A DNA stretch of 43,853 nucleotides, from NCBI GenBank assembly GCA_018242465.1, contig JAFEBY010000034.1:1-43853 (forward strand), written 5' to 3'. Positions 3,047 through 22,964 of the stretch are shown piece after piece. Source of the DNA: Pseudomonadota bacterium. Its GTDB lineage: Bacteria; Pseudomonadota; Gammaproteobacteria; Xanthomonadales; Xanthomonadaceae. Each line of letters begins with the position of its first letter. The stretch's first letter is position 1. The position numbers and the translations under genes were made by a program. The notes below the pieces were generated by a model that was given only the letters and a program-made list of their open reading frames with translations, had not been told where the DNA came from and ran no database searches.

Positions 3047-3133
3047 CTGCACTCTCCGTCTGGTTTGCACCATCATCGTACCGGTGCATGATCGCACCCG
3101 CACGATGTTCCCTTGCACATCCGAGGAATCCCC

Positions 3134-6197: not shown

Positions 6198-6872
6198 ATG
6201 CGCATCCTCATCGCGGAAGACGACGCCCACATCGCCGCCGGCATGCAGAACCTGTTGGTCGCGCGCGGCCACGCCGTCGATTGCGTGGGCGACGGCAAGC
6301 AGGCCGAACAGGCCGGCAAGAGTGGTGTCTACCAGCTACTGATCCTTGATATCGGCCTGCCATCATTGGAAGGCGGTGAAGTGATTCGCCGCTTGCGTGC
6401 GGCGCGCATCGATACCCCGATCCTGGTGGTCAGCGCCGGCGAAGCCTTGAACGAGCGCGTGCGCATCCTCGATCTCGGCGCCGACGACTATCTGGTCAAG
6501 CCATTCGCGATCGCCGAGTTCGACGCCCGCGTGCGCGCGCATCTGCGCCGCGGCTCGGCACAGGGCGCGACCGAGCTTGAAGTCGGCGGGCTGGTGATCG
6601 ATCCCGGTGACCAGCGCGCACGCGGCCCGAATGGCCCGATCGAACTCACCGCCCGCGAATTCGCTCTGGTCTCGCTGCTCGCCGCACGCGCCGGCCGCAT
6701 CGTCAGTCGCGCGCAAATGATGGAGACGATCTGCGCCTGGGACAGTGAGCTCACCGACAACGGCCTTGATATCGCACTGCATCGCCTGCGTCGCAAGATC
6801 CAGAATTGCAGCGTGCGCCTGCGCACCGTGCGCGGCCTCGGCTATCTGCTGGAACCCCTCGGCGATGAATGA
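6198..6872 (+). CDS. OmpR/PhoB-family response regulator
   Basis: A 224-residue DNA-binding response regulator. The receiver domain (1-115) has the acidic pocket EDD at 7-9, the phospho-acceptor D51 in LILDIGLP, and K101 in LVKPF. The C-terminal half is a winged helix typical of OmpR (LTAREFALVSLLA, then HRLRRKI and RTVRGLGYLL). It is the partner of the kinase that follows, with which it overlaps by 8 bp. It starts 4 bp after an exported protein gene, so the sequence suggests one transcript from 5432. The target genes are not known; proximity makes the downstream esterase/SMR/DegT operon or the mipA-type gene reasonable guesses. Confidence 0.93.
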   Translation: MRILIAEDDAHIAAGMQNLLVARGHAVDCVGDGKQAEQAGKSGVYQLLILDIGLPSLEGGEVIRRLRAARIDTPILVVSAGEALNERVRILDLGADDYLVKPFAIAEFDARVRAHLRRGSAQGATELEVGGLVIDPGDQRARGPNGPIELTAREFALVSLLAARAGRIVSRAQMMETICAWDSELTDNGLDIALHRLRRKIQNCSVRLRTVRGLGYLLEPLGDE

Positions 6873-8274
6873 GCGCGCGCCTCGGCGCACCAGTCTGTAT
6901 CGCAGCCTGCTGGTGTACCTCAGCGTGCCATTGACCGTGCTGGCGCTGATCGCCGCCCTGGTGACGTACGAGATGGCACGCTACTACGCCAATCGCGCCC
7001 ACGATGCCGAGCTGATCGAACAGGTCGATTCGGTCGTCAAGCTGATGGACACGCAACCGGAAACTTTCCGCGCGTTCTCGCCTCAGGCGTTGTTCCTCAT
7101 CCAGTACGATCCCGACGGGTTCCAGTTCTACTCCATCACCAGCGCCCGCAAGGGCGTGATCGCCGCCAATTTCCAGCCGCCTGTCGAATCACTGCCGGCC
7201 ACGGTCAACGAGCCGGTCAAGCTGTCGACGATTCGCGCGGAACGCCATCTGCGCCTGGCATCGCGTTCTTTCCACCCCAAGGTCGACCCCGGCGACACCG
7301 TGATGGTCACGGTCGCCGAAAGCTTCACCGATCGCCGGCGCTGGGCGCAGCGCATCCTGCTGCTGACCATCCCGACCCTGCTGTTGATGGTGGTCGGCCT
7401 GATCTTCGTGATCCGCAGTGGCATCGATACCGGCCTGAAGCGGCTGGATCCGCTCATCACGCGCCTGCGTCGCGGCGATGCCCTGCACAAGCCATTGCTT
7501 GATGCCGATGTCCCTTCGGAAGTCGCGCCGCTCGCCGGCACCATCGACACCCTCGTCTCCAGCCTGCGCGAAGCGTTGGCGGTGCAATCGCGTTTCATCG
7601 CCGATGCCGCCCACCAGTTGCGCACCCCCCTGGCTGGCCTGCGCCTGCACTCCGAACGTGCGCTCGCCGATCCGCGCCCGGAAGTGCTGGAGGATGCACT
7701 CGGCCATGTCGCGCGACTGACCGACCGCACCTCGCGCATCGCCGAACAACTGCTGTCGCTCGCACGCGTACAGTCGGTGCAGGCCACGTTGCCGCAACGC
7801 GTCGACCTGTCCGCAATCGTCCCAGAGATGGTGGGCGAACGCGTGCCAGATGCATTGCGTGCCGGCGTCGATCTTGGCTATGACGGCCCCCATCCCGGAA
7901 GCGTGTTCGCGATGATCGATGCTGCCGCGTTGCACGAAGCCATCGACAACCTGATCGATAACGCCCTGTTCCATGCCGGCCGCGGCCATGCCGCGACGGT
8001 GAGCCTGTCGCAACAGGACGGCACCGTCCAACTGACGATGGAAGACGACGGCCCCGGCGTCGATGACGCGGCGCTGGCTCGCCTGGGCGAGCGTTTCTTC
8101 CAGGTGGCTGGCGGCAATGGCGGCAGCGGTCTGGGCCTGGCAATCGTCGAAGAGGTGCTGTCACGCCATGACGGACGCGTGCGCTATGCGCGCGGAGGTG
8201 CGGGCGGCCTGCGGGTGGAACTCTTGTTGCCTGCCGCACAGGCTCCCGGAAAGGTGGATGAAACCGCTGGCTGA
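6865..8274 (+). CDS. Sensor histidine kinase (TctE/QseC type)
   Basis: A 469-residue inner-membrane kinase. TM1 is around 14-34, a periplasmic domain spans about 40-162, TM2 about 164-184, followed by a HAMP-like linker. The H-box has H250 in FIADAAHQLRTPLAGL; the N-box contains EAIDNLIDNALFHAG; the G-boxes are DDGPGVD and GGSGLGLAIVEEV. The N-terminal layout is that of the two-component sensor family that includes TctE (2CSK_N domain), whose members often sense carboxylates, but the ligand cannot be read from the sequence. The start at 6865 gives ATGAATGA overlapping the regulator's stop. Only 12 bp separate it from the downstream esterase gene. Confidence 0.92.
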   Translation: MNERAPRRTSLYRSLLVYLSVPLTVLALIAALVTYEMARYYANRAHDAELIEQVDSVVKLMDTQPETFRAFSPQALFLIQYDPDGFQFYSITSARKGVIAANFQPPVESLPATVNEPVKLSTIRAERHLRLASRSFHPKVDPGDTVMVTVAESFTDRRRWAQRILLLTIPTLLLMVVGLIFVIRSGIDTGLKRLDPLITRLRRGDALHKPLLDADVPSEVAPLAGTIDTLVSSLREALAVQSRFIADAAHQLRTPLAGLRLHSERALADPRPEVLEDALGHVARLTDRTSRIAEQLLSLARVQSVQATLPQRVDLSAIVPEMVGERVPDALRAGVDLGYDGPHPGSVFAMIDAAALHEAIDNLIDNALFHAGRGHAATVSLSQQDGTVQLTMEDDGPGVDDAALARLGERFFQVAGGNGGSGLGLAIVEEVLSRHDGRVRYARGGAGGLRVELLLPAAQAPGKVDETAG

Positions 8275-8286
8275 CACTCTGGCGGC

Positions 8287-9132
8287 GTGAACGAAGCACC
8301 CTTCCCGTTGCAGCCGGCCGAATTTTTCTATGAAGGCGGCCCCAATGCCGTCCTGCTGACGCATGGCCTCACCGGCACGCCCAATGAAATGCGCCTGCTG
8401 GCGCGTGGCCTCAACCGGCGCGGCTTCACCGTGTTCGGCGTGCAACTGGCCGGGCATTGCGGCGACATGGATGATTTGCTGGCGACGCGCTGGCAGGACT
8501 GGGCCGCGAGCGTACAGACCGCGGCGGAACACCTGCGCGGACATTGCGATCGTCTGTTCGTCGGCGGGTTGTCGATGGGTGCGCTGCTTGCGCTCAACCT
8601 CGCCGCCGACCGCCCCGACCTGGTCGATGGCGTCGGCGTCTATGGCGCGACTTTCCGTTACGACGGCTGGAGCGTGCCGCGCATCGCGCGATTGTCCGGG
8701 CTGTTGCCGTTGCTCAAGAAACTCAACATCGGTCGTGATCGCGTCTTCATGGAACAGCCGCCCTACGGCATCCGCGACGAACGCCTGCGCGCACAGATCA
8801 GTACCGCCATGCAGGGCAGCGACAGCTCTGTCGCGGGATTGCCCGGCAACCCCTGGCACTCGCTGGCGGAACTCCACCAGCTGGCGAAGCGCGTGCGCCG
8901 CCAGTTGTCGCAGGTCAGCGCGCCATGTCTGGTCGCGCATGCCAGCGATGACGACATCGCCAGCCTCGACAACGCCGAAGTCGTGTTGCGCAGCGTGTCC
9001 GGCCCAACCGAATTGCTCCTGCTCGACAACAGCTACCACATGATCACCATCGATCGCGAACATCGCCTGCTGATTGATCGCAGCGCCAGCTTCTTTGATC
9101 GCATCGCCGCCAATCCAGCGCACACCGCATGA
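8287..9132 (+). CDS. Alpha/beta hydrolase (carboxylesterase/lipase-like)
   Basis: A 281-residue alpha/beta hydrolase. The nucleophile elbow is GLSMG with S96; the oxyanion loop is LLTHGLTGTPNEM (about 24-36); the likely acid is in ASDDDIAS (221-223), and the base is H251 in NSYHMITID. The NSYHMxTxD end is shared with bacterial monoacylglycerol-lipase/carboxylesterases of the EstD/Est30 type, so it probably cleaves a fatty-acyl or aryl ester or an acyl thioester. No signal peptide is seen. The start is GTG. It is the first gene of a run that overlaps the SMR pair (ATGA at 9129), so it may release, trim or edit the product of the nearby ACP/ketoacyl-synthase operon; that role is inferred from context. 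Confidence 0.88.
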   Translation: MNEAPFPLQPAEFFYEGGPNAVLLTHGLTGTPNEMRLLARGLNRRGFTVFGVQLAGHCGDMDDLLATRWQDWAASVQTAAEHLRGHCDRLFVGGLSMGALLALNLAADRPDLVDGVGVYGATFRYDGWSVPRIARLSGLLPLLKKLNIGRDRVFMEQPPYGIRDERLRAQISTAMQGSDSSVAGLPGNPWHSLAELHQLAKRVRRQLSQVSAPCLVAHASDDDIASLDNAEVVLRSVSGPTELLLLDNSYHMITIDREHRLLIDRSASFFDRIAANPAHTA

Positions 9133-9473
9133 CGCCACTGGCCACCGCCCTCTGGCTCGCCAATGCCGCGCTCGATACCGGTGGACAACTCTGTTTCAAG
9201 ACCGCCGCCCATCACGGCGACAATGGCTGGCGCACGCTGGCCCGGCAACCGATGCTGTGGCTGGGCCTGCTGTGCTACTTCGGTGAATTCCTGGCGTGGA
9301 TCGCCTTCCTGTCGCAGGTTCCACTGTCGCTCGGCGTGCTGCTCGGTTCGGTCAACATCGTTGTCGTGATGGTCGCCGGGAGAATGTTCTTCCGGGAAAA
9401 ACTCACGCCATTGCGGGTGGGCGGCATCCTGCTGGTCTGCATCGGCGTGGCGCTGGTGGGGATCGGCGCGTGA
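9129..9473 (+). CDS. Small EamA/SMR-type membrane protein, first of a pair (ArnE-like)
   Basis: A 114-residue protein with four predicted transmembrane helices: about 5-20, 42-62, 67-85 and 95-113. It has the size and look of one half of a DMT/SMR transporter; the last two helices (LGVLLGSVNIVVVMVAG; GGILLVCIGVALVGIG) match the EamA half-repeat around the REKLTPLRVGG linker. It overlaps the esterase by ATGA and the second small protein by GTGA, which suggests co-translation and a heterodimer, as in the ArnE/ArnF flippase for undecaprenyl-phosphate-L-Ara4N. No arn genes are present, so a different lipid-linked or amphipathic substrate is likely. That assignment is inferred. Confidence 0.75.
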   Translation: MTPLATALWLANAALDTGGQLCFKTAAHHGDNGWRTLARQPMLWLGLLCYFGEFLAWIAFLSQVPLSLGVLLGSVNIVVVMVAGRMFFREKLTPLRVGGILLVCIGVALVGIGA

Positions 9474-9880
9474 GAAGGCTCTACGCAATCGGATTCCCCG
9501 TACTGATGGCCTTCGATACGCTGGCGCAGACCTGCTTCAAGATCGCCGGCAACCACGCCTTGCCGTTCGCGGTGGACTTCACGTGGATCGTGCGCGTGGC
9601 GGAACAGCCGTGGACCTGGGTCGCGCTGTGCGGCTATCTCGGCGCGTTCCTGACCTGGATGCGATTATTGCGCGATGCCCCGATCGGACCGGCGTTCGCG
9701 GCATCGCACCTGGAAGTGGTGAGCGTGCTGTTTGTATCCGCATGGTGGCTGCACGAACGCATCACGCCACTGCAGCTGCTGGGCGCGCTGGTGATCGTGC
9801 TTGGAATCGGACTGTTGGCCATATCGGAATCGTCGGAGTCGCACGGGGCTGCGGAGATGGCTGATGAGACGCCTGACTGA
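9470..9880 (+). CDS. Small EamA/SMR-type membrane protein, second of a pair (ArnF-like)
   Basis: A 136-residue, four-helix protein related to the preceding one. Shared features are the LAQTCFKIAGNHA opening (compare GGQLCFKTAAHHG in the first) and the HERITPLQLLGALVIVLGIGLL end. The GTG start at 9470 overlaps the upstream stop by GTGA. A longer reading frame from 9296 is rejected because it would run out of frame through the first gene. Two unequal small subunits made from overlapping genes argue for an antiparallel heterodimer. Its last 17 bases overlap the DegT aminotransferase gene. The cargo is unknown; a product of the adjoining biosynthetic genes is the simplest guess. Confidence 0.75.
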   Translation: MRRLYAIGFPVLMAFDTLAQTCFKIAGNHALPFAVDFTWIVRVAEQPWTWVALCGYLGAFLTWMRLLRDAPIGPAFAASHLEVVSVLFVSAWWLHERITPLQLLGALVIVLGIGLLAISESSESHGAAEMADETPD

Positions 9881-11060
9881 AATCCCGCCAACCGCCGGAC
9901 TGCCGCCACGACTGTCCGACCTGCTTGCATCGCGGCGCGATCTCGCCGGTGCACTGTCCGCACAACTCGGCGTCGACAACGCATTGGTCACCTGCTCCGG
10001 CACTGCTGCGCTGATGCTGGCCTTGCGCGTTGCGCAACAACGCCAACCCCGGCGCGACATCGTGGTGGTTCCGGCGTTTACCTGCCCGCTGGTCGCGATC
10101 GCCGTGCGTGCGCTGGGACTGCGCTTGCGCATCGCCGATCTCGCGCATGACAGGCTGGATATCGACCTGGACTCGTTGCGCGCGCAACTCGATGAGCGCG
10201 TGCTGGCCGCGGTGCCGACGCACCTGGGCGGACGCGTCACCGATGTCGCGGCGGTGAATCGCCTGGTTGCCGGTTCCGGCATCGTGGTGATCGAGGATGC
10301 CGCCCAATCGCTGGGCGCGACCATCGAGGGCCGCAGCATTGGCCTGGCCGGTGATGTCGGATTTTTCAGCCTCGCTGCCGGCAAGGGCCTGTCGACATAC
10401 GAAGGCGGTGTAACGATCGCACGCGATCCATCGTGGCTGGAGGCCATGGAGGCGCTGCAAAATGCACTCCCGAAACAAGCGGCGTTCGAGCGCCGCCGTT
10501 GCGTCGAACTGATCGGTTACACCCTGCTCTATCGCCCGTTGCCGCTGCGCTGGGCTTACGGATCTCCGCTGCGCCGCGCCCTGAAGCACAGCGATCCGGT
10601 AGGCGCGATCGGCGATCGCTTTCCGATGGAGGTGCCCCTGCATCGCATGGGCGCATGGCGGCAGGGCGTCGGCGCGAATGCCGCCCATCGCCTGCCGCAA
10701 TTCCTGGACGCACGTCGACGCTGCGCGTTGTCGCGGATCGACCGACTGCGTGCGATTCCCGGCGTTCATGTCTTTACGGATCGGAATGGAGAGCGTGGCA
10801 CTTGGCCAACATTGCTGGTCCGCATGGACAGTGCGCATCGACGCGATGCCGTGCTCGATCGCCTGTGGACCTCCGGCCTCGGCGCGAGCCGGATGTTCAT
10901 CCACGCCTTGCCCGATTACATCGAACTGCGTGACATCGTCCCGCGCCAACAGTGCCCGAATGCGTTGGACCTCGCTGCACGCACCCTCACGATCAGCAAC
11001 AGTCCGTGGTTGCGCGATGAAGATTTCGAGGCCATTTGCCAGGTGCTCGAGGCCAGTTAG
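9864..11060 (+). CDS. DegT/DnrJ/EryC1-family PLP aminotransferase
   Basis: A 398-residue, fold-type I PLP enzyme. The PLP lysine is K174 in SLAAGKGLSTYEGG; the cofactor-binding Asp lies in IEDAAQSLGA (144-152); the substrate/PLP loop is CSGTAAL near 44-50. Typical DegT members aminate keto-sugars on nucleotide carriers (ArnB, DesV). Here the substrate-facing segments diverge: VPAFTCPLVAIAV and LAAGKGLS replace the usual sequences, and there is a long Arg-rich insert at about 207-260. The start overlaps the SMR gene and the stop overlaps the stop of the convergent ureohydrolase gene by 4 bp. It could make an amino-sugar or aminate another carbonyl intermediate; the substrate is open. Confidence 0.85.
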   Translation: MRRLTEIPPTAGLPPRLSDLLASRRDLAGALSAQLGVDNALVTCSGTAALMLALRVAQQRQPRRDIVVVPAFTCPLVAIAVRALGLRLRIADLAHDRLDIDLDSLRAQLDERVLAAVPTHLGGRVTDVAAVNRLVAGSGIVVIEDAAQSLGATIEGRSIGLAGDVGFFSLAAGKGLSTYEGGVTIARDPSWLEAMEALQNALPKQAAFERRRCVELIGYTLLYRPLPLRWAYGSPLRRALKHSDPVGAIGDRFPMEVPLHRMGAWRQGVGANAAHRLPQFLDARRRCALSRIDRLRAIPGVHVFTDRNGERGTWPTLLVRMDSAHRRDAVLDRLWTSGLGASRMFIHALPDYIELRDIVPRQQCPNALDLAARTLTISNSPWLRDEDFEAICQVLEAS

Positions 11061-11911
11061 GGCAACGCCACGAGCAACCTGCGATTCACTTCCGCCTGCC
11101 CGCGCTGCCAGCCATCGATCTCGTCCTGGCACGGATCCGGTTGTTGGTCGATCCGACTCAGCAGTCGCTTGAACAAGCTGCGATAGCGATACATCGACAC
11201 CTCGCCGGTAATGTCGCTGGCGACGATCCGAGACCTCAAGGCCGAGATCACCGTCAACGCATCATCGAGCAGGAATCGTCCCTGGTCCCAGTTGGTGCGC
11301 ACGACTTCGGGTGCGAACACGTCCTTGTCGATCGAGAAATACACCGGCATCGGGTCGTTCGCCATCGCGGGAATGAATTCGGCGAGCAGCTGTTGCGGGG
11401 AATCGAAATTGCGCAGCGTCGTGATTCCGCGTTTTCCAGCCCACGACGTGTCGACACCGACGCACCAGTAATGCACCCGGCCACTGCGCAACGCGCCCAA
11501 CTGGTTTTCCCACGCATGCCTGCGGCCGGCATCGGCGGATGAAATGCCCAGCACGTGGACGTCAGCCACGCCGGGCAACGCCGCCGCGCGCCCAACCCAT
11601 GATCCGCAATGGAGACCGAACAGGAAACGCATATTGTCCGGATGGTTGTCCAGCACGACCACGCGCACTTGCCGGCGGCGTGCCTCGAATTCGATCAAGG
11701 GCAGGCTGAGGTGATGGAAGTCACCGCTGCCCATCAGCACCGTGCCGTGCGGTGCCATCAGCATCGGGGCGATCGCGGTGGCGAAGTGCTGCATATCGCG
11801 TCTGCGACAGGAAAAACGCAGGCGTTCCTGCCAGTGCTGCAATGGCAAGCGATCACTGAGACCGATATCGCCCACCGAGCCGTCGAGATCGAGGATCAGC
11901 GGGGCGCTCAT
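11057..11911 (-). CDS. Ureohydrolase (arginase/agmatinase-fold) family protein, divergent
   Basis: A 284-residue protein with all the dimanganese-site motifs of the arginase fold in altered form. GSGDFHH (61-67) stands where GGDHS is usual; VLDNHPD supplies D88, H90 and D92 (canonical DAHxD); and FSIDKDVFAPE supplies D195 and D197 (canonical SxDxDxxDP). So the metal ligands are kept while the surroundings differ, which points to a C-N hydrolase acting on something other than arginine or agmatine, for example a guanidino, formimino or acyl-amide group. It is the last gene of the six-gene minus operon and its start overlaps the stop of the FemAB-like gene by ATGA. Activity is inferred from the ligands only. 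Confidence 0.75.
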   Translation of the reverse strand: MSAPLILDLDGSVGDIGLSDRLPLQHWQERLRFSCRRRDMQHFATAIAPMLMAPHGTVLMGSGDFHHLSLPLIEFEARRRQVRVVVLDNHPDNMRFLFGLHCGSWVGRAAALPGVADVHVLGISSADAGRRHAWENQLGALRSGRVHYWCVGVDTSWAGKRGITTLRNFDSPQQLLAEFIPAMANDPMPVYFSIDKDVFAPEVVRTNWDQGRFLLDDALTVISALRSRIVASDITGEVSMYRYRSLFKRLLSRIDQQPDPCQDEIDGWQRGQAEVNRRLLVALP

Positions 11912-12978
11912 GCCGGCGTGCCTTCGAACAGGCCACGCATCCGCCCGAGCAACCAGCGCAGGACGGGATTCCGCGGACGCACCGCGTGCCAGGTCAGCGT
12001 GAAGCGCGCACCGAGCTGGCGTTTGGCCTCGGCGTCGGTCCAGCCGGCGACATACCGCTTCACACCCAGCATGCGCGCGTACTCCAGGTTGTGCATCCAG
12101 CTGAGCGCATAGAGGTTGTTCTCGCGAGCCTGCGGGTAGGCGAAGCCGACATACTTGTCGACCAGCATGTCATGCCGGAGATAACACAGATTCCAGCCGA
12201 TCATGCGGCCATCGCGGCGATAGACGAACACGACGCCATCGCCATCGGGCTGGCGCAGCAGCCGCGCGAGGAAGTCGCGCGTCAGCTCGTCGAAATGCAC
12301 ATCGCTCTGAGCATGCACGTTGGCGAACAACTGATGGAAGGCATCGATCGTCGCTTCTTCGGAGAAGCAGGGATCGCCACAGGCGACCTGCTCGATGTCC
12401 ACATTCTTGCGCGCGCGCAGCTTGCGACGGATGTCCTTGCGCCGTGACGACGACAGCCGTGACAGGTAGTCGTCCTCGCTGGCGTGGTCGAGCGGCACCC
12501 ACGCCAGCGGCATGCCTTCCAACAGGGCGAAGCCACGCGCTTCCAGTTCGGTGATCAACCGCTCGCAGGTGCGATTCTCGTCATCGTTCAGCAATGGTGA
12601 GTTGCGCGCCAGATCCTTGACGATCAGCAATCGCGCTTTGCGGTCGACACCGTCCACGATGGCGTCGGCAAATTTCGCCGCCGCGACACCCTTCGGCAAC
12701 AAGGCGTATTCGCTGGACGTGCAGCCGACGAATTGCGTATTCCAGCACAACCATTGTGACCAATGGCGATAGCCCGGCCATCGTTGCAACGTGCGCCGCA
12801 CCGGGGGGTCGAGCGTGGTGAGGATGTCGAATTTGGCGCGGAAACGCGGTGCGCCAGCAATCGTGTCTGCGACGAAATCGCGGGGTGGATGTTCCAGCCA
12901 CGCGCGGATCACGGCTTCGGGTTCGAGCTGGGCGATCCAGCGCGCTTCCGGTTCGGCCGCGCGGACCGCCATGTTCAC
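11908..12978 (-). CDS. FemAB-like GNAT acyltransferase (peptidoglycan/lipid aminoacyltransferase-type)
   Basis: A 356-residue protein of the Acetyltransf_6/FemAB-like group. The C-terminal GNAT half has the run VFVYRRDGRMIGWNLCYLRHDMLVDKYVG followed by LYALSWMHNLEYARMLGVKRY, which is the typical beta4-alpha3 order in these proteins. An Arg/Lys-rich stretch (SSRRKDIRRKLRARKN) in the middle is also characteristic of this group. Members attach amino-acyl or acyl groups to peptidoglycan precursors, lipids or sphingosine-like amines. Here the partner could be the operon's own acyl carrier protein, from which an acyl group would be moved to an amine; that is inference. Both ends overlap the neighbours by 4 bp. 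Confidence 0.75.
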   Translation of the reverse strand: MNMAVRAAEPEARWIAQLEPEAVIRAWLEHPPRDFVADTIAGAPRFRAKFDILTTLDPPVRRTLQRWPGYRHWSQWLCWNTQFVGCTSSEYALLPKGVAAAKFADAIVDGVDRKARLLIVKDLARNSPLLNDDENRTCERLITELEARGFALLEGMPLAWVPLDHASEDDYLSRLSSSRRKDIRRKLRARKNVDIEQVACGDPCFSEEATIDAFHQLFANVHAQSDVHFDELTRDFLARLLRQPDGDGVVFVYRRDGRMIGWNLCYLRHDMLVDKYVGFAYPQARENNLYALSWMHNLEYARMLGVKRYVAGWTDAEAKRQLGARFTLTWHAVRPRNPVLRWLLGRMRGLFEGTPA

Positions 12979-14189
12979 GCCTGGCGTACCGCCAGCACCG
13001 CGTTCAGGCCGCCAAAGGCGAACGAATTGCTGAGCGCCGCGCGAATCCTCGCCGGGCGCCCGACGTTCGGCACGATGTCGAGATCACAAGCAGGATCAGC
13101 TTGTTCGTAATTCGCAGTCGGCGGCACGAACTGCGCGTCCAGTGCCGACACCATCGCGACAAGCTCCAGTGCACCGGCCGCGCCCAGTGCGTGGCCATGC
13201 ATCGATTTGGTTGACGTGACGGGGATGCCTTGCGCATGCGTGCCCAGTGCGATGCGAATCGCCCTGGACTCGGTGGCATCGTTGGCCATGGTGCCGGTGC
13301 CGTGTGCATTTATGTAGCCGATATCCGCGGCTTCCAACTCGGCATCCTGCAGTGCACGCGTGATTGACAATGCCGCGCCCTCCGCCGATGGCGCGACGAT
13401 GTCGCCGGCATCCGCGCTCATCCCGGCCCCGGCGAGTTCGACGAGGATCGTCGCGCCACGCGACTTGGCATGCTCCATTTCTTCCAGCACGAAGACCGCA
13501 GCGCCTTCGCCCAGCACCAAGCCGCGGCGATTGGCACTGAACGGACGGCAGGTATCGTCGGCAACCACGCGCATCGCATCCCAAGCCTTCAACAAGCCGA
13601 AGGTGAGGCAGGCCTCGGTGCCGCCAGTCAACATCACATCGGCTGCACCGGAACGAATCGTTGCCAGCGCCTGCGCCACCGCGTGGTTGGCCGATGCACA
13701 GGCGCTCGAGACCGAGAACACCGGGCCGCGCAGGCCATGCACCATGCTGACATGACTTGCGGGGGCGTTGGCCATGGTGCGAACGATGGTGAGAGGATGC
13801 ATGCGCTCGGCACCCTCGCCATACAGGCGCTTGCTCTGTTCGTCATGCGAAGTGACGCCGCCGATGCCGGTGCCGATAATGGTGCCGATGCGTTCGCCTT
13901 CGCCGCGCATGTCGAGCCCGCACTGCCGCACCGCTTCATTCGATGCTGCCACCACGAATTGCGAGCAGCGATCGAGCAACGGCAGCATCGACTCGTCCAT
14001 CATCGCCGCAAGATCGATGCCTTCCGGCAATTGCGCGGCGACCTTCATCCGCACCCGCGCGGATTCGGGATGACGCAGGGGGGCAATCGCCGAACGCCCT
14101 TCGCGCAAGCCCTGCCACAGCGGCCCGACACCCACGCCGAATGGACTCACCGCACCCATTCCGGTGATGACGACCCGCCGCTTGCTCAT
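12975..14189 (-). CDS. Beta-ketoacyl-ACP synthase, FabF/KAS II type
   Basis: A 404-residue condensing enzyme with the full catalytic triad: C164 in SVSSACASANHA, H296 in NAHGTGTMANDATES, and H333 in STKSMHGHALGAAGA, with the conserved Lys328 before it. It should join an acyl group to malonyl-ACP by decarboxylative Claisen condensation. It sits 4 bp after a dedicated ACP gene and within an aminotransferase/acyltransferase operon, not in a fab cluster, so it is probably a specialised synthase and not the housekeeping FabF. The tail of the active-site loop (CRPFSANRRGLVLGEGA) matches KAS II and not chain-length-factor proteins. The acyl primer and number of rounds are unknown. Confidence 0.9.
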   Translation of the reverse strand: MSKRRVVITGMGAVSPFGVGVGPLWQGLREGRSAIAPLRHPESARVRMKVAAQLPEGIDLAAMMDESMLPLLDRCSQFVVAASNEAVRQCGLDMRGEGERIGTIIGTGIGGVTSHDEQSKRLYGEGAERMHPLTIVRTMANAPASHVSMVHGLRGPVFSVSSACASANHAVAQALATIRSGAADVMLTGGTEACLTFGLLKAWDAMRVVADDTCRPFSANRRGLVLGEGAAVFVLEEMEHAKSRGATILVELAGAGMSADAGDIVAPSAEGAALSITRALQDAELEAADIGYINAHGTGTMANDATESRAIRIALGTHAQGIPVTSTKSMHGHALGAAGALELVAMVSALDAQFVPPTANYEQADPACDLDIVPNVGRPARIRAALSNSFAFGGLNAVLAVRQA

Positions 14190-14193
14190 CGAA

Positions 14194-14463
14194 TCAGCCC
14201 TGCGCCTTTGCCGCCAATGTGCCCTTCACCACGTCCACCAACTGTTGCACGGTGTCGCTTCCGAAGTTGGGCCCCTGGTCGGGGAACGTGATGCCGTAGT
14301 GTTCCTCGATGTCGAACAGCAATTCGATCGCGTCCAGCGAGCTGACACCGATGTCCTTCAGCGTCGACTCGGGATGGATGATCGCAAGATCGATCTTGGC
14401 CTTGGCCGCGATCAGGGATGCGATCTCGTCGAAGATGGCTTTCTCGTCCGGTGTGTCGTTCAT
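14194..14463 (-). CDS. Acyl carrier protein (phosphopantetheine-binding)
   Basis: An acidic 89-residue carrier protein. The phosphopantetheine site is in DIGVSSLDAIELLFDIEEHYG, with the modified serine most likely S42; the usual Asp of the DSL motif is Ser here (SSL). The helix-2 acidic surface is retained, so docking to ketoacyl synthases is expected. It starts 23 bp after the class III aminotransferase and ends 4 bp before the ketoacyl synthase. The position suggests that one or both enzymes act on carrier-bound intermediates. It is distinct from the housekeeping AcpP, whose neighbours (fabD, fabG, fabF) are absent. Confidence 0.92.
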   Translation of the reverse strand: MNDTPDEKAIFDEIASLIAAKAKIDLAIIHPESTLKDIGVSSLDAIELLFDIEEHYGITFPDQGPNFGSDTVQQLVDVVKGTLAAKAQG

Positions 14464-14486
14464 GTCTTTCTCCCCAGTGTGGCGGC

Positions 14487-15908
14487 TCAGGCGCCGGCCT
14501 TGGCCTTGGTCAGTAACTGGTCGAGCAGCGCGATCGCCAGATCGATCTCCTCGTGCGTGATGTCGAGCGACGGCGCCAGCGTGATCACGTTCTTGTACCA
14601 GCCACCGACGTCGAGCACGAGGCCGATCGGCTTGCCGTTGTGGCGCAGGTCGCCGGCCAGTCCGATGTCGACCATGCGATCGAGCAGCGCGCGATTCGGC
14701 GTGAAACCGTCGGCTTCGCAGATTTCCGCGCGCAATGCCAGGCCCAGCCCGTCGACGTCGCCGATTTCGGGATGGCGCTTCTGCAGGTCGCGCAGTCCAT
14801 CGAGGAAGTGCGCGCCCTTCACCGGCACCGTACGCTCATAGTCCATGTCCTTGCCCAGGCGCATCACTTCCAGTCCAAGCGCGGTGCCCAACGGATTGGA
14901 ATTGAACGTCGAGTGGGTCGAGCCCGCGGGGAAGACCGTCGGGTTGATCAGTTCCTCGCGCGCCCACAGGCCCGACAGCGGATTGAGGCCATTGGTCAGC
15001 GCCTTGCCGAACACCAGCACGTCGGGCTCGACACCGAAGTGTTCGATCGACCACAGCTTGCCGGTGCGCCAGAAGCCCATCTGGATTTCATCGACGACGA
15101 GCAGGATGCCGTACTTGTCGAGCACCTTCTTCAGGTCGCGGAAGAAGTGGCGTGGCGGAATCACGTAGCCACCGGTGCCCTGGATCGGCTCGACGTAGAA
15201 AGCGGCGTACTCGGCCTGGTTGACCTTGGGATCCCATACGCCGTTGTATTCGGTCTCGAACAAGCGCGCGAAGCGCTGCACGCAGGCATCGGAATATTCG
15301 TCCGCGGTCATGCCCTTGGGGCGACGGAACGGATACGGGAACGGAATGAACATCGCGCGTTCGCCAAAATGACCGAAGCGACGGCGATAGCGATAGCTCG
15401 AGGTGATCGACGACGCGCCCAGCGTGCGCCCGTGGTAGCCGCCCTCGAAGGCGAACATCAGGCTCTTGCCGTTGCAGGCGTTGCGTACGATCTTCAGCGA
15501 ATCCTCGATCGCCTGGGCGCCGCCGACGTTGAAGTGCACGCGCCCCTTGCGACCGAACTTGGCCTGCGCATCGAGCGCGATGGTCTTGGCGAGTTCGATG
15601 CGGGTCGGATGCAAGTACTGGCTGGCGACCTGCGGCAAGGTGTCGATCTGGCGCTTCAGCGCGTCGTTGAGGCGCGGGTTGGCGTAACCGAAGTTGCAGG
15701 CGGAATACCACATCTGCAGGTCGAGATAGGGAATGCCCGCGCCGTCGTACATGTAGCTGCCATCACAGCCGTGGAAGATCTTCGGCGGATCGACGTAATG
15801 GACGGTATCGCCATGCGAGCTGTAAAGCTCTTCGTCGGCGAGAAGTTGGGCATCGTCGTAACCGTCGCCGGGACGGGTGGACTGGATCGCGGCGAGGTTA
15901 GCCGACAT
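14487..15908 (-). CDS. Class III (omega) PLP aminotransferase
   Basis: A 473-residue aminotransferase of fold type I, subgroup II. The PLP lysine is K302 in VLVFGKALTNG; D273/E274 in LLVVDEIQMGFWRTGK bind the cofactor ring; the glycine-rich FNVGGAQAIEDSLK segment holds the phosphate. It is related to 4-aminobutyrate and lysine 6-aminotransferases, but the N-terminal ~45 residues and the AMFIPFPYPFRRPKG insert are unlike the standard enzymes. Next to an ACP and a ketoacyl synthase, it could aminate a carbonyl on a carrier-bound chain, as stand-alone AMT enzymes do, or make a small amino building block. The start at 15908 gives MSANLAA and overlaps the upstream HAD gene by 11 bp; the longer frame to 16022 is antisense-like and rejected. 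Confidence 0.88.
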   Translation of the reverse strand: MSANLAAIQSTRPGDGYDDAQLLADEELYSSHGDTVHYVDPPKIFHGCDGSYMYDGAGIPYLDLQMWYSACNFGYANPRLNDALKRQIDTLPQVASQYLHPTRIELAKTIALDAQAKFGRKGRVHFNVGGAQAIEDSLKIVRNACNGKSLMFAFEGGYHGRTLGASSITSSYRYRRRFGHFGERAMFIPFPYPFRRPKGMTADEYSDACVQRFARLFETEYNGVWDPKVNQAEYAAFYVEPIQGTGGYVIPPRHFFRDLKKVLDKYGILLVVDEIQMGFWRTGKLWSIEHFGVEPDVLVFGKALTNGLNPLSGLWAREELINPTVFPAGSTHSTFNSNPLGTALGLEVMRLGKDMDYERTVPVKGAHFLDGLRDLQKRHPEIGDVDGLGLALRAEICEADGFTPNRALLDRMVDIGLAGDLRHNGKPIGLVLDVGGWYKNVITLAPSLDITHEEIDLAIALLDQLLTKAKAGA

Positions 15909-16593
15909 GTGAGGTCTCCAGGTATTCGGTGATGGATTCGAGATCGCCGCGCAACAACCGCGGCAGCCATTCCAGCGCCTCGGCGAAACCGGTGATCGGA
16001 ACATAAGGGATGCCGGCGGCACGGCAGTGTTCGATCAGGCGATGCTTGGCGAACACGAAATCGGCGCGGTCGGCTACGCAAAAGTCCGAGACACCATCGC
16101 CGATCAACAAGGTCTTGCGGCCCTGCTCGCGCGCCATCCGTGCAACCGCGCATTTGCAGGTGCCGCTGCCACAGCCTTCGGCGCTATAGGGGGATTCCAG
16201 CCGCCAGTGCTTGGGATCTGCGGTCGGCTGCAAGGAATTGGCGACGACGTCGAGATCGTCCATGCCGAAGCGTGCCAGGATGTTGTGGATCGCGTAATCA
16301 AGACCATCGCTGACCACGCGGATCGGAATGCCGCTCGCGCGCAGCGCAGCGTGGAAGGCCGGGAACGCGGGGTCGATCCACAAGTCGGCGAGATGCGCAT
16401 CCAGCTCGTCGCGGCGCATCTGCAGGAGCTTGGTCTGTCCCTGCATGCATTCGCGCGAACCGATGCGGCCCGCGCGCCAGTCGCGTTCCAGCGTTTCCCA
16501 GCCGGGCTCGCCGAAACGCACCAGCAACGAATCGATGACGTCTTCGACGCTGATGGTGCCATCGAAATCACACAACACGGTCCAGTTGCCCAC
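15898..16593 (-). CDS. HAD-IB phosphatase (MtnX/phosphoserine-phosphatase-like)
   Basis: A 231-residue haloacid-dehalogenase-type phosphatase. Motif I is DFDGT (9-13), with the catalytic nucleophile Asp9 and acid/base Asp11; motif II is VVSDGLD; motif IV is IGDGVSDFCVA. The layout, with the cap between motifs I and II, is subfamily IB, which includes phosphoserine phosphatase, MtnX and PHOSPHO1. A CxSGTCKCA stretch near the C-terminal third (EGCGSGTCKCA) is also typical of MtnX-like proteins. As first gene of the minus operon it likely removes phosphate from an early precursor of the cluster's product. The start is GTG, and the 140-bp gap upstream separates it from the divergent mipA-type gene and probably holds promoters for both. 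Confidence 0.85.
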   Translation of the reverse strand: MGNWTVLCDFDGTISVEDVIDSLLVRFGEPGWETLERDWRAGRIGSRECMQGQTKLLQMRRDELDAHLADLWIDPAFPAFHAALRASGIPIRVVSDGLDYAIHNILARFGMDDLDVVANSLQPTADPKHWRLESPYSAEGCGSGTCKCAVARMAREQGRKTLLIGDGVSDFCVADRADFVFAKHRLIEHCRAAGIPYVPITGFAEALEWLPRLLRGDLESITEYLETSHVG

Positions 16594-16733: not shown

Positions 16734-17525
16734 ATGACCCGATTTCCACACTCCCTCGTGCTCGCCATCGCGCTTGCCGGCTGCAGCTTGGCTGCACAGG
16801 CGCAGGAATCGCCGGAAACATCGGATGCGCCGGTCTACGCCATTGGCGCAGGCATACAACGCCTTCCGGCGTGGCTGGGCGCTAAGCACCAGCGCACGCA
16901 GGTCGTCCCCTTCTTCGATATTGAACTGCCCGGCAAGGCTGAGCTGTCATCGGTCGACGGGCTCACTGTCGACATCGTGCGCGGAAAGCACTGGCATGGC
17001 GGCGTGTATGCCGACATCGTCTGGGGCCGTTCCCGCGGCGACCTCGGCCCACAACTCGCGCCGGTGGTCAAGCGCATCAATGATCGACTGGCAGCCGGCG
17101 GCTATCTCGAGAACGAAATCAACAAGACGGTGACGATCGGGACGCGCGCGATGCGCGAGCTAGGCGGCAATGGCGCCTATGCCGACCTCTACGCCGACAT
17201 CACCTTGCCGAAGATGTTCAAGCATGTGGAACACGGCTTCGAATTTTCAGTGCGCGCCGCCAATGCCGCATCCAATCATGAACGCTTCGGATTGAACGCA
17301 ATGCAGGCGTCACAGTTGAACCTGTCGCCATCTCATCCCGGAGCGGGCTGGCAACAAGCGTCGTTTCAATACCAGATCTTCGTGCCGACCAGCCAGCACA
17401 CCGGCATCGCCGCCAACATCGAATACGCGCGATTGCTTGGTGAACCTGCACGCAGTCCACTGGTGAATGGATTCGGCCAACGCATGCAACTCAGCGAAGG
17501 CATCGCCTTCGTCTATCACTTCTGA
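16734..17525 (+). CDS. MipA/OmpV-family outer-membrane protein
   Basis: A 263-residue exported protein. The signal peptide is MTRFPHSLVLAIALAGCSLAA followed by a cut near AQAQ-ESPE. The mature part opens with the family pattern YAIGAGIQRLPAWLGAKHQRT and VVPFFDIELPG, then alternating Gly/aromatic strands, and ends in the outer-membrane-type C-terminus VYHF. MipA/OmpV proteins are beta-barrels scaffolding peptidoglycan enzymes or otherwise poorly understood. The gene is divergent from the HAD/aminotransferase operon, so it may be co-regulated with it. The gene is often controlled by a two-component system in other bacteria; here a two-component system lies 8-10 kb upstream. Confidence 0.8.
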   Translation: MTRFPHSLVLAIALAGCSLAAQAQESPETSDAPVYAIGAGIQRLPAWLGAKHQRTQVVPFFDIELPGKAELSSVDGLTVDIVRGKHWHGGVYADIVWGRSRGDLGPQLAPVVKRINDRLAAGGYLENEINKTVTIGTRAMRELGGNGAYADLYADITLPKMFKHVEHGFEFSVRAANAASNHERFGLNAMQASQLNLSPSHPGAGWQQASFQYQIFVPTSQHTGIAANIEYARLLGEPARSPLVNGFGQRMQLSEGIAFVYHF

Positions 17526-17757: not shown

Positions 17758-19512
17758 ATGGTGTTCTCCCCCCGCAAACTGCCAGAACGCAACGCCTTGG
17801 CCGCGTTCGCCACGGGGCGCTATGCACCCAATGCCTATGACGCACTCGCGTTCGTCCTGATCATCGGCTTGATCGCCATGATCGCCCACGGCATCGGCGA
17901 GATGCATGCGCCGCTGACCGTGCTGGCACACACGCCTGTCACCCTGGATGCATCGCGATTGCCCGAATACGGGTTGCGTACCACCTTGCGGATGTTCGCT
18001 GCGATGCTGGCATCGTTGCTGTTCACCTTCACCGTCGCCACGCTTGCGGCCAAGAACAAGCGTGCCGAACTGGTGATCGTGCCGGCACTGGACATTCTGC
18101 AATCGGTGCCAGTGCTCGGTTTCCTCACATTCACCGTCGCCTTCTTCATGCGCCTGTTCCCGGGCAGCCAACTCGGCGCGGAGTGCGCTTCGATCTTCGC
18201 GATCTTCACCGCGCAGGCATGGAACATGGCGTTCTCGTTCTACCAGTCTCTGCGCACGGTTCCGCAGGACCTGGATGAAGTGAGCCGCGGTTTCGGTTTC
18301 TCGGCGTGGCAGCGGTTCTGGCGGCTGGAGGCGCCGTTCGCCGCGCCCGGCCTGATCTGGAACATGATGATGTCGATGTCCGGCAGCTGGTTCTTCGTGG
18401 TGGCGTCGGAAGCCATCACCGTCGGCAACACCACCGTCGAACTTCCGGGCATCGGTTCCTATCTGGCCCATGCCATCGACCACAGGAATTTCGTGGCGGT
18501 CGCGTGGGCGGTGCTGGCGATGGCGGTGCTGATCGCCCTCTACGACCAGTTGCTATTCCGGCCGATCGTGGCATGGGCGGACAAGTTCCGTTTCGAGCAG
18601 ACCGCGGGCAAGGACCAGCCGCACTCGTGGATGTATGAACTGATGCGGCGCACGCGCGTGCTCAAGCATCTGTACCAACCGCTCGACTGGCTGTCGCAAC
18701 GAATGATGGCCCTGCGCCTCAGGTCGATCATGCCCGCGGCAAGAAGCCAGGCCGCACCGCAGCGGGGGTTACTCGGCGATCGCCTGTGGCTCGCGGTCGT
18801 GATCCTCACGGCGTTCGCCGGTGGCTGGCTGGCCTTCGACTACATGCGGCAATCGCTGGGCTGGTACGACGTTGGGCATGCGCTTGTCGCGGGCCTCGCC
18901 ACACTGCTGCGCGTCGTCGTCCTGATCGCCCTCGCCAGCGTGATCTGGGTACCGATCGGTGTGTGGATCGGCTTGCGCCCGCGCGTGGCCCAGCGCATTC
19001 AACCGCTGGCGCAATTCCTCGCCGCCTTCCCCGCGAACGTCCTGTTTCCGGTCGCGGTGGTGGTGATCGTGGCCACGCACGCCAACCCGGACCTGTGGCT
19101 GTCGCCGCTGATGGTGCTGGGGACGCAGTGGTACATCCTGTTCAACGTCATCGCCGGCGCCAGTGCATTCCCGGGCGACCTGCGCGAAGTCGCCATGGTC
19201 TACCGCCTGCATTCGTGGACGTGGTGGCGCAAGGTGATCCTGCCGGGCGTGTTTCCCTACTACGTCACCGGCGCCCTGACTGCCTCCGGCGGATCGTGGA
19301 ATGCCAGCATCGTGGCCGAACTCGCCAACTGGGGCGATACCCGCATCGAAGCATTCGGGCTAGGGTCCTACATCGCCAAGGCAACCCAGGCAGGCGACTA
19401 TCGGCGCGTGGTGCTGGGCATCGCGGTCATGTCCCTGTTCGTCACCCTGCTCAATCGAATCCTGTGGCGTCGCCTGTACGTCTTTGCCGAACGCCGCCTG
19501 CGGCTGTCCTGA
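17758..19512 (+). CDS. ABC importer permease, duplicated (anion/nitrate-sulfonate type)
   Basis: A 584-residue inner-membrane protein in which two permease domains of the nitrate/sulfonate/bicarbonate type are fused. Each half carries an EAA-type loop that docks the ATPase: DLDEVSRGFGFSAWQRFWRL (about residues 170-190) and DLREVAMVYRLHSWTWWRKV (about 474-494), each followed by related motifs (SGSWFFVVASEAI and SGGSWNASIVAEL). This is the architecture of COG4986, a permease with two fused halves needing no second partner. The ATPase gene follows 13 bp after the stop. No periplasmic binding protein is encoded nearby, so substrate is unknown; it could be supplied from elsewhere or not be needed. 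Confidence 0.9.
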   Translation: MVFSPRKLPERNALAAFATGRYAPNAYDALAFVLIIGLIAMIAHGIGEMHAPLTVLAHTPVTLDASRLPEYGLRTTLRMFAAMLASLLFTFTVATLAAKNKRAELVIVPALDILQSVPVLGFLTFTVAFFMRLFPGSQLGAECASIFAIFTAQAWNMAFSFYQSLRTVPQDLDEVSRGFGFSAWQRFWRLEAPFAAPGLIWNMMMSMSGSWFFVVASEAITVGNTTVELPGIGSYLAHAIDHRNFVAVAWAVLAMAVLIALYDQLLFRPIVAWADKFRFEQTAGKDQPHSWMYELMRRTRVLKHLYQPLDWLSQRMMALRLRSIMPAARSQAAPQRGLLGDRLWLAVVILTAFAGGWLAFDYMRQSLGWYDVGHALVAGLATLLRVVVLIALASVIWVPIGVWIGLRPRVAQRIQPLAQFLAAFPANVLFPVAVVVIVATHANPDLWLSPLMVLGTQWYILFNVIAGASAFPGDLREVAMVYRLHSWTWWRKVILPGVFPYYVTGALTASGGSWNASIVAELANWGDTRIEAFGLGSYIAKATQAGDYRRVVLGIAVMSLFVTLLNRILWRRLYVFAERRLRLS

Positions 19513-19525
19513 TCCGGGGAATCCC

Positions 19526-20815
19526 ATGAACGCATCCATCCAAAACACGCCCTTGGTCGCCGTACGCGGCGTGCGCAAGCTGTACGACAAGGGCGGCCCG
19601 GACGCATTGTTGGTGCTCGACAAGGTCGACCTCGAACTGCATCGCGGCGAAATCGTCGGCCTGCTCGGACGCTCCGGCTCGGGAAAATCTACCTTGCTGC
19701 GCTCGATCGCGGGATTGATCAAGCCGAGCGAAGGCACGATCGAATTCGAAGGCGCAGCCGGCGACATCGCGATGGTATTCCAGAGTTTCGCGCTGTTCCC
19801 CTGGCTCACCGTGCAGGAAAACGTCGAGATCGGACTGGAAGCTCGCGGCATGCCGGTGGCCGAGCGCCGCACGCGCGCACTGGCCGCCATCGACCTGATC
19901 GGCCTCGACGGTTATGAAAACGCCTATCCCAAGGAATTGTCGGGCGGCATGCGCCAACGCGTCGGCCTCGCCCGCGCATTGGTGGTGCATCCCAAAGTCT
20001 TGCTGATGGATGAGCCGTTCTCCGCGCTTGACGTCCTCACCGCCGAGAACCTGCGCACCGACCTCCTCGATCTGTGGTCGGAAGCGCGCATGCCGATCGA
20101 CGCCATCCTGATGGTGACGCACAATATCGAGGAAGCGGTCCTGATGTGCGATCGCATCATGATCTTCGGCTCCAACCCCGGTCGCGTCATCGGCGAGGTC
20201 CGCGTCAATCTGCCACAACCGCGCAATCGCCTCGATCCCGCGTTCCGCGCATTAGTCGAAGACATCTACGCGCGCATGACGGCAAGAACGTCACCTGCCC
20301 GTGATGGCATCTTCCCCGGTATCGGCATCGCGATGGAATTGCCGAATGTGTCGAGCAATCTGCTCGCAGGCCTGATCGAAGCGGTCGCCGCCGAGCCTTA
20401 CCACGGCCATGCCGACCTGCCGCCGTTGGCGGCTAGCCTGCAACTCGAGATCGACGAATTGTTTCCGATCGCGGAGACCCTGCAACTGCTGCGGTTTGCC
20501 GAAGTGGAAGGCGGCGATATCCGCCTCACCGCCGCAGGCCGGCGTTTTGCCGAAAGCGAAGTGGACGAACGCAAACGCATGTTCGCCCTGCAACTGGCGG
20601 CCCACGTGCCGCTGGCCGCCCACATCCGCCGCGTGCTGGATGAACGCTCCAGCCATCGCGCGTCGGCGTTGCGCTTCCGCGACGAACTGGAAGATTCGAT
20701 GTCCGACGAGTACGCCGAAGCAACCCTGAAAGCGGTCACCGGCTGGGGGCGTTACGCCGAATACTTCGCCTACGACGACGAGGCCGACATGTTTTCGCTG
20801 GAAGATCCGGGCTGA
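19526..20815 (+). CDS. ABC importer ATPase with C-terminal AAA-associated domain
   Basis: A 429-residue ATPase, partner of the duplicated permease. Walker A is GRSGSGKST (48-56), the signature is LSGGMRQRVGLARAL, Walker B is LLMDEPFSALD, and the switch His is in VTHNIEEAV. After about residue 265, past the normal end of a nitrate/taurine-type ATPase, comes a ~150-residue extra region with ELPNVSSNLLAGLIEAVAAE and HADLPPLAASLQLEIDEL, matching the AAA-associated C-terminal domain found in some bacterial ABC ATPases; it probably regulates the transporter. The start at 19526 follows a GGGGAA ribosome-binding site. Confidence 0.92.
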   Translation: MNASIQNTPLVAVRGVRKLYDKGGPDALLVLDKVDLELHRGEIVGLLGRSGSGKSTLLRSIAGLIKPSEGTIEFEGAAGDIAMVFQSFALFPWLTVQENVEIGLEARGMPVAERRTRALAAIDLIGLDGYENAYPKELSGGMRQRVGLARALVVHPKVLLMDEPFSALDVLTAENLRTDLLDLWSEARMPIDAILMVTHNIEEAVLMCDRIMIFGSNPGRVIGEVRVNLPQPRNRLDPAFRALVEDIYARMTARTSPARDGIFPGIGIAMELPNVSSNLLAGLIEAVAAEPYHGHADLPPLAASLQLEIDELFPIAETLQLLRFAEVEGGDIRLTAAGRRFAESEVDERKRMFALQLAAHVPLAAHIRRVLDERSSHRASALRFRDELEDSMSDEYAEATLKAVTGWGRYAEYFAYDDEADMFSLEDPG

Positions 20816-21736: not shown

Positions 21737-21847
21737 CGTCCTGATAATAGAACGATACGGACGAGTTTTGCCTACTTTCGGCCAGATCGTTGCGAGATTA
21801 GCCTGTGCGCAATCGGTGATCCCACCGAATCCTCCTCGGAGCACACC

Positions 21848-22723: not shown

Positions 22724-22748
22724 TCGCAGTGCGCTGAGGTCATCCCCA

Positions 22749-22964
22749 TTGCACATGTCGCCTGCGCAGCCTGACGATCCGTTCCACGTCGGGCTGGTGC
22801 AAGGCGGCGAATGGCGTGCGCCGCCCACGCTGCCGAAGAATCCAAACTTCCGCGGCTACGTGGTGTTCCTGGTCAACCCATCGTCGCGTTGTCGATCACG
22901 AAGCGATACTTCACGTCGCTCTTCAGCATGCGCTCGTAGGCCTTGTCGATCTCCTTGGCGCTGA
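22749..22964 (+). pseudogene. Possible remnant of an unidentified gene
   Basis: A TTG-started frame encodes about 42 residues with protein-like composition (PDDPFHVGLVQGGEWRAPP, PKNPNFRGYVVFLV), then runs into the 3' end of the alcohol dehydrogenase gene on the other strand, where it becomes Arg/Ser-rich as an antisense frame would. It may be the N-terminal stub of a gene cut by a rearrangement. I do not recognise the family, and chance cannot be excluded. Confidence 0.25.

What the first reader, a model, noticed from the sequence alone, without database searches (positions are those of the whole stretch)
8287..16593. Two convergent operons form an unassigned ACP-linked aminotransferase/acyltransferase biosynthetic system
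Ten genes are packed with start-stop overlaps: HAD phosphatase, class III aminotransferase, dedicated ACP, KAS II-type ketoacyl synthase, FemAB-like acyltransferase and ureohydrolase on the minus strand; esterase, two SMR-type proteins and a DegT aminotransferase on the plus strand, the two runs meeting with a 4-bp stop overlap. The mix (carrier, condensation, amination, C-N hydrolysis, export) suggests an aminated acyl or amino-sugar-acyl product. I know no described pathway with this exact set. The product is inference.
Basis: partly seen in the sequence, partly recalled or inferred. Interest (0 to 1): 0.78.

Follow-up and report, generated by a model that had tools for sequence, protein, structure and literature searches.

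The report
Unassigned envelope aminolipid-type gene module
A set of about ten linked bacterial genes with no known product recurs together in many Proteobacteria and looks like a dedicated pathway that makes and exports an amine-bearing envelope molecule, probably a lipid.

Summary
They belong to a real co-inherited module. In the best 80 loci found with the arginase-like protein, the FemAB-like gene is present in 80, esterase in 70, SMR genes in 69-70, DegT in 69, class III aminotransferase in 60, KAS in 58. Five of the genes mark nearly the same 11-14 of 100 relative genomes.

Two corrections. KAS/ACP are optional: not seen at the locus in Stenotrophomonas maltophilia or in 15 of 18 loci from other lineages. 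The widest constant is HAD + class III enzyme + esterase, often with the FemAB-like/arginase-like pair and two EamA proteins. The plus operon really begins with a two-component system (6198-8274).

The FemAB-like model resembles MprF/FemX aminoacyl-tRNA-dependent transferases; the arginase-like protein keeps its metal ligands. Relatives add a fatty acid desaturase, CFA synthase or DevC-like exporter. Best reading: an envelope aminolipid pathway in which an amine is amino-acylated, deguanidinated and exported. Product, acceptor and amino acid are inferred. Ten searches of a partial literature library showed no description.

The parts
6198..6872 (+). response regulator, first gene of the plus-strand run
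   Evidence: frame; homologue near the module in 41 of 80 loci, threshold E 1e-5, so unrelated regulators may be counted
6865..8274 (+). sensor histidine kinase
   Evidence: ATG at 6865, 8-bp overlap with the regulator; homologue in 44 of 80 loci
8287..9132 (+). alpha/beta hydrolase (esterase)
   Evidence: Hydrolase_4; Ser/Asp/His conserved
9129..9473 (+). EamA/SMR small membrane protein 1
   Evidence: EamA; best model ArnE, 41 bits against a cut-off of 92
9470..9880 (+). EamA/SMR small membrane protein 2
   Evidence: EamA; best model ArnF, 25 bits against a cut-off of 99
9864..11060 (+). DegT-type PLP aminotransferase
   Evidence: PF01041; PLP Lys 85/85
11057..11911 (-). arginase-family (ureohydrolase-fold) protein
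   Evidence: PF00491; metal ligands 108/108; model pLDDT 91.2 and arginase-fold hits
11908..12978 (-). FemAB-like/GNAT protein
   Evidence: PF13480 and PF04339; model pLDDT 91.4 closest to MprF/FemX
12975..14189 (-). FabF-type ketoacyl synthase
   Evidence: Cys-His-His 73/73
14194..14463 (-). acyl carrier protein
   Evidence: PF00550; Ser 72/72
14487..15908 (-). class III aminotransferase-fold enzyme with Thr at the usual keto-acid Arg position
   Evidence: PF00202
15898..16593 (-). MtnX-like HAD-IB phosphatase
   Evidence: TIGR01489 above cut-off; Asp 86/86
16734..17525 (+). MipA-like outer-membrane protein, divergent from HAD; possible partner
   Evidence: PF06629; homologue near the module in 20 of 80 and 5 of 18 loci

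Best explanation
The locus is a dedicated, regulated pathway that makes and exports an amine-bearing envelope molecule, most likely an aminolipid. SHOWN: the genes are linked, co-inherited and keep their catalytic residues; HAD, the class III enzyme and the esterase form the widest core, often joined by the FemAB-like/arginase-like pair and two EamA proteins; KAS/ACP, DegT, a desaturase, a CFA synthase and an ABC/TolC-type exporter occur only in some lineages; a two-component system and a MipA-like barrel are often beside it. INFERRED: HAD and the class III enzyme build the amine; KAS/ACP, where present, supply a dedicated acyl chain and the esterase releases or trims it; the FemAB-like enzyme, with the fold of MprF and FemX, transfers an amino acid (I suggest arginine, from its tRNA) onto that amine; the arginase-like enzyme then removes urea and leaves an ornithine-like cationic head; the EamA pair flips the product, and DevC-like exporters, where present, carry it outward; the two-component system turns the pathway on under envelope stress.
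For: Co-inheritance: 11-14 of 100 genomes, nearly the same ones for five genes. Linkage. FemAB-like fold: the 26 best PDB hits are all MprF/LPG synthase, FemX or Sba18/Sbb17 type, E 5e-11 to 1e-8, TM 0.47-0.56. Arginase-like: metal ligands 108/108, fold hits to formimidoylglutamase, metformin hydrolase, proclavaminate amidinohydrolase, guanidinopropionase, agmatinase, arginase. Lipid signs in some lineages: KAS/ACP, desaturase and CFA synthase beside it in Rhizobium and Phyllobacterium, a desaturase in L025, DevC-like permease in L093, TolC/ABC/adaptor genes in Agrobacterium and X. sacchari. Envelope signs: two-component genes and MipA/OmpV genes. Small EamA proteins resemble ArnE/ArnF, below cut-off.
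Against: No chemistry. The FemAB-like protein shares 10-15% identity with its fold hits, is not in the MprF Pfam family, and its profile finds no PDB chain by sequence, so tRNA use is untested. Lipid-type additions are lineage-specific. Versions lacking the FemAB-like/arginase-like pair exist (G018, L142, L152-L157 apart from a partial FemAB-like match in L154), and in Bartonella only class III + FemAB-like + arginase-like were seen within 25 kb. MprF-type genes occur in 4 of the 13 genomes with the arginase-like gene, so the module does not simply replace MprF.
Confidence: 0.35

Rival explanations
1. A soluble secreted natural product (signal-, siderophore- or antibiotic-like N-acyl amine) made by the same enzymes and exported by the EamA pair and, in some lineages, a TolC-type ABC pump.
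For: Carrier, condensation, amination and export genes together; patchy distribution and plasmid carriage; adaptor/ABC/TolC genes beside it in several lineages.
Against: No activating or releasing synthetase among the ten proteins. CFA synthase and desaturase in Rhizobium-type versions point to lipids.
Confidence: 0.28
2. KAS and the class III enzyme make a beta-amino fatty acid on the ACP, which the FemAB-like enzyme then acylates or amino-acylates.
For: KAS, ACP and class III enzyme are intact and next to each other in the window. Class III domains do this in iturin-type synthases (recalled).
Against: KAS/ACP are not seen at many loci that keep the class III enzyme (15 of 18), so a dedicated ACP is not generally needed; general fatty acid synthesis could still supply one.
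Confidence: 0.13
3. An Arn-like modification of an envelope sugar: DegT aminates a sugar and the EamA pair flips a lipid-linked amino sugar.
For: DegT matches sugar aminotransferases; EamA proteins' best models are ArnE/ArnF; G018 has a PIG-L deacetylase in the operon.
Against: All Arn models are below cut-off. No sugar-nucleotide or glycosyltransferase gene among the ten. DegT is found in 5 of 18 loci outside the order.
Confidence: 0.1
4. An arginine, guanidine or polyamine catabolic locus whose genes happen to be neighbours.
For: Class III aminotransferase and arginase-fold families are common in such pathways.
Against: Co-inheritance of five genes. KAS, ACP and FemAB-like have no place there. 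The window arginase-like protein matches no NCBIfam model.
Confidence: 0.06

Closest known systems
MprF (aminoacyl-phosphatidylglycerol synthase plus flippase)
   Same: Best fold match of the FemAB-like protein is a MprF synthase domain; a transferase and membrane proteins that could flip a lipid stand side by side.
   Different: FemAB-like is a 356-residue soluble-type protein, scores PF13480/PF04339 and not PF09924; the putative flippase is an EamA pair; HAD, class III, esterase and arginase-like enzymes have no MprF counterpart.
FemX/FemAB and Sba18/Sbb17 aminoacyl-tRNA-dependent transferases
   Same: Fold matches at ranks 2-25.
   Different: 10-15% identity; acceptor and donor unknown here.
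Ureohydrolases (arginase, agmatinase, proclavaminate amidinohydrolase)
   Same: Fold and metal ligands.
   Different: Weak Pfam score (26.3 bits), no NCBIfam model, own NWDQG motif (Asn, Asp and Gln each 108/108).
Arn (aminoarabinose) operon
   Same: EamA pair and a DegT aminotransferase.
   Different: ArnE, ArnF and ArnB models all below cut-off; no other Arn enzyme among the ten.
DevBCA-type lipid exporters
   Same: A DevC-like permease with ATPase, adaptor and outer-membrane protein lies beside the module in L093.
   Different: 72 bits against a cut-off of 290; no such permease beside the ten genes in the window was identified.

Membership tests
MprF / LPG synthase | match to PF09924 | tested here: not met
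   only PF13480 and PF04339 for the FemAB-like protein; the same genome G000 has no PF09924 match
MprF / LPG synthase | dual-GNAT transferase fold | tested here: met
   MprF domain at rank 1, TM 0.56 by query; moderate similarity only
MprF / LPG synthase | aminoacyl-tRNA as donor | not testable with these tools
   needs an assay
Ureohydrolase superfamily | fold and di-metal ligands | tested here: met
Ureohydrolase superfamily | membership of a named arginase or agmatinase family | tested here: not met
   no NCBIfam model; the Agrobacterium homologue reaches agmatinase models far below cut-off
Class III aminotransferases | fold family and PLP lysine | tested here: met
   PF00202; Lys 90/90
Class III aminotransferases | Arg that binds the keto-acid carboxylate (role recalled) | tested here: not met
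   alignments show Arg in GABA aminotransferase and two racemases; Thr here in 90 of 90
Arn aminoarabinose pathway | ArnB, ArnE, ArnF equivalogs | tested here: not met
   ArnE 41 of 92, ArnF 27 and 25 of 99, ArnB 76 of 631 bits
Bacterial ceramide pathway | serine palmitoyltransferase in the locus | tested here: not met
   the only PLP enzymes are class III and DegT
Ornithine-lipid pathway (OlsBA/OlsF) | OlsB/OlsA or OlsF homologues | tested here: inconclusive
   no such hit; whether those libraries hold dedicated models was not checked
Anti-phage defence systems | match to a PADLOC model | tested here: not met
   none for 8 of the 10 proteins (the two small EamA proteins were not given)

The most novel reading that the evidence does not exclude
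A tRNA-dependent route to ornithine-headed lipids: an MprF-fold enzyme puts arginine from Arg-tRNA onto a dedicated lipid amine, and a lipid-arginase converts the head to ornithine in place. This would give ornithine, an amino acid without a codon, a path from the translation pool into the membrane, with its own flippase pair and sensor.
Probability: 0.15. Interest if true: 0.85.

Novelty: new variant of a known kind. Interest (0 to 1): 0.6.

Why it matters
The same unassigned module sits in soil, plant, insect and clinical genera (Rhodanobacter, Dyella, Stenotrophomonas, Xanthomonas, Delftia, Rhizobium, Agrobacterium, Bartonella, a Gilliamella assembly), often next to two-component genes. If it makes a cationic lipid, it is a missed part of envelope chemistry in much-studied bacteria, and it would give meaning to genes now annotated only as generic hydrolase, aminotransferase and transporter.

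Tried and rejected
Literature: ten searches of a CC-licensed PMC library. Searches returned no paper; one unrelated paper each; 13, 4 and 2 papers; 1,081 papers, of which I saw the 20 listed. None of the titles and abstract starts shown describes this gene set. Most subscription journals are not held, so absence is weak. Of papers I saw search listings, passages of PMC3222319 and the abstract and outline of PMC10936184, nothing more.

Serinol idea: HAD plus aminotransferase could make serinol from dihydroxyacetone phosphate, as RtxA does. The passages do not say that RtxA is class III, and nothing here supports it.

MprF replacement: tested and not supported. MprF-type genes are in 12 of 100 relatives; 4 of the 13 genomes with the arginase-like gene have both, slightly more than chance (P 0.048).

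Sequence profiles against the PDB: none for FemAB-like, weak hits for arginase-like (best E 3e-4).

Loss or insertion within the genus: a gene on each side was searched in the 17 genomes of the genus. They were found in 5 and 6 genomes, all of which carry the module, so the six module-bearing members may be one subclade and no clean empty site was found. I built no tree. The probabilities ignore relatedness, and the five gene searches used different E-value limits (1e-3, 1e-150, 1e-40, 1e-30, 1e-10).
Full report
WHAT IS THERE. Pfam and NCBIfam place them as alpha/beta hydrolase, two small EamA/SMR membrane proteins, DegT-type aminotransferase, arginase-family protein, FemAB-like/GNAT protein, FabF-type KAS, ACP, class III aminotransferase and MtnX-like HAD phosphatase. 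The plus-strand run is longer than reported: a response regulator (6198-6872) and a histidine kinase (6865-8274) precede the esterase, with 12 bp between kinase stop and esterase start. On the other side a MipA-like outer-membrane gene (16734-17525) diverges from HAD.

IS IT MORE THAN CHANCE. The arginase-like protein was searched in 100 relative genomes: 13 hits, 6 among the 17 genomes of the genus (own included) and 7 outside it. The class III enzyme (14), esterase (14), FemAB-like (14, one of them weak at 31% in G081) and DegT (11) fall in nearly the same genomes. Among these five, pairwise overlaps are 11-14 genomes with hypergeometric values of 3e-12 to 2e-17. Those values ignore relatedness, and the six congeners may be one subclade. 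In an even draw of 281 genomes of the class, 3 had a match: the own genome, one other strong, one very weak. They are mostly Xanthomonadales (Lysobacter silvestris, Rhodanobacter, Dyella, Luteibacter, Stenotrophomonas, Xanthomonas) plus Salinisphaera, Delftia, and assemblies labelled Comamonas, Burkholderiaceae, Betaproteobacteria and Gilliamella.

GENE CONTENT. In those 80 loci (up to 21 kb, several cut by contig ends): FemAB-like 80, arginase-like 80, esterase 70, SMR2 70, SMR1 69, DegT 69, class III 60, KAS 58, ACP 57, HAD 56, kinase 44, regulator 41, MipA-like 20 (E up to 1e-5, so some kinase and regulator matches may be unrelated family members). The order is rearranged between genera while the set stays together. 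KAS/ACP are not seen at the S. maltophilia, X. vasicola, Pseudoxanthomonas, Delftia and Gilliamella loci. Dyella amyloliquefaciens keeps had and the class III gene about 150 kb away on the same contig.

OUTSIDE THE ORDER. The class III enzyme was found in 28 of 397 genomes drawn from the phylum. I fetched 18 of these 28 neighbourhoods and scored them with profiles of each family: HAD 16, esterase 16, FemAB-like 10, arginase-like 10, DegT 5, MipA-like 5, KAS 3, ACP 3 of 18 (some cut by contig ends). Of the other ten, five were already held and five were not examined. Thirty-four plasmid records carry the gene: Rhizobium 16, Agrobacterium 10, Bartonella 5, Xanthomonas 1, Sinorhizobium 1, Phyllobacterium 1. 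I read five. Rhizobium leguminosarum and Phyllobacterium: HAD, class III, arginase family, EamA, fatty acid desaturase, alpha/beta hydrolase, FemAB-like/GNAT, EamA, CFA synthase, then a convergent MipA/OmpV gene. Agrobacterium: HAD to the second EamA, followed by TolC, ABC permease, ATPase and adaptor. Xanthomonas sacchari: the full window-like set. Bartonella sp. HY406: within 25 kb only class III, FemAB-like and arginase-like. Genome G018 keeps HAD, class III, esterase, EamA pair, ACP and KAS but has a PIG-L deacetylase and a 615-residue protein without a Pfam or NCBIfam hit next to HAD, and no FemAB-like or arginase-like gene there.

THE ENZYMES. Residues needed for catalysis are conserved. 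The FemAB-like model (pLDDT 91.4) has MprF synthase domains, FemX and Sba18/Sbb17 as its 26 best PDB hits, with TM 0.47-0.56 by query and 10-15% identity; it is not in the MprF Pfam family. The arginase-like model (pLDDT 91.2) matches formimidoylglutamase, metformin hydrolase, proclavaminate amidinohydrolase, guanidinopropionase, agmatinase and arginase. The class III enzyme is the most conserved member: 65-80% identity in most loci outside the order where the FemAB-like protein is at 24-49%. In alignments with solved enzymes the position of the Arg in NVLRI of GABA aminotransferase, which binds the keto-acid carboxylate (role recalled), is Thr here: in 90 of 91 rows, and in 90 of 90 after the non-orthologue L097 was dropped. 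BioA is another class III enzyme without this Arg (recalled), so an unusual donor or acceptor is likely.

HOW IT MAY WORK. The steps are marked as shown or inferred in the best explanation. Lipid signs in some lineages (KAS/ACP, desaturase, CFA synthase, DevC-like exporter) and envelope signs (two-component genes, MipA-like barrels) favour an envelope aminolipid. MipA of P. aeruginosa is reported as a polymyxin sensor that works with ParRS (PMC10936184, abstract); this is a lead, not a test. The step from an arginyl to an ornithyl head is my inference from finding an MprF-fold transferase with an arginase-fold hydrolase in 80 of 80 loci. Those loci were chosen by the hydrolase, so the figure counts the transferase's company and not the reverse.

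WHAT SPEAKS AGAINST. There is no chemistry. Versions differ (a core without the transferase/hydrolase pair; a trio alone in Bartonella), so the product may differ by lineage. MprF-type genes coexist in 4 of 13 genomes. The literature library is partial, so novelty is provisional.

VERDICT.

Noticed in passing
window 2027-3784 (-): One 585-residue frame joins an N-terminal half to a 6-phosphogluconate dehydrogenase-like half. G006 also has it in one frame; in G004, G007 and G014 the two halves match separate places.
   Followed up: partly
window 3834-4517 (+): A 227-residue protein matches only the last third of the ribonucleotide reductase small-chain model.
   Followed up: no
window 20831-22828 (-): A LysR-type regulator whose frame has about 365 residues before the DNA-binding domain; the true start may lie downstream.
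   Followed up: no
window 17758-20815 (+): A double-permease ABC transporter gene and an ATPase gene with a C-terminal AAA_assoc_C domain; the permease is next to the module in only 2 of 80 loci, so it is probably unrelated.
   Followed up: partly
L154:7866-9479 (-): The esterase frame continues into a partial FemAB-like region (E 9e-13 against the L025 homologue): a possible fusion of two module genes.
   Followed up: partly
L156:9911-12231 (+): A 55%-identical class III enzyme overlaps a sulfotransferase gene, with no other module gene seen.
   Followed up: no
L161:11986-17989: The Bartonella plasmid trio (class III, FemAB-like, arginase-like) lies convergent to a DltB-like MBOAT acyltransferase and an AlgX-like gene.
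   Followed up: no
L048 near 3.0 kb and 5.7 kb: Two class III homologues (86% and 61%) lie in one locus, a possible paralogue.
   Followed up: no
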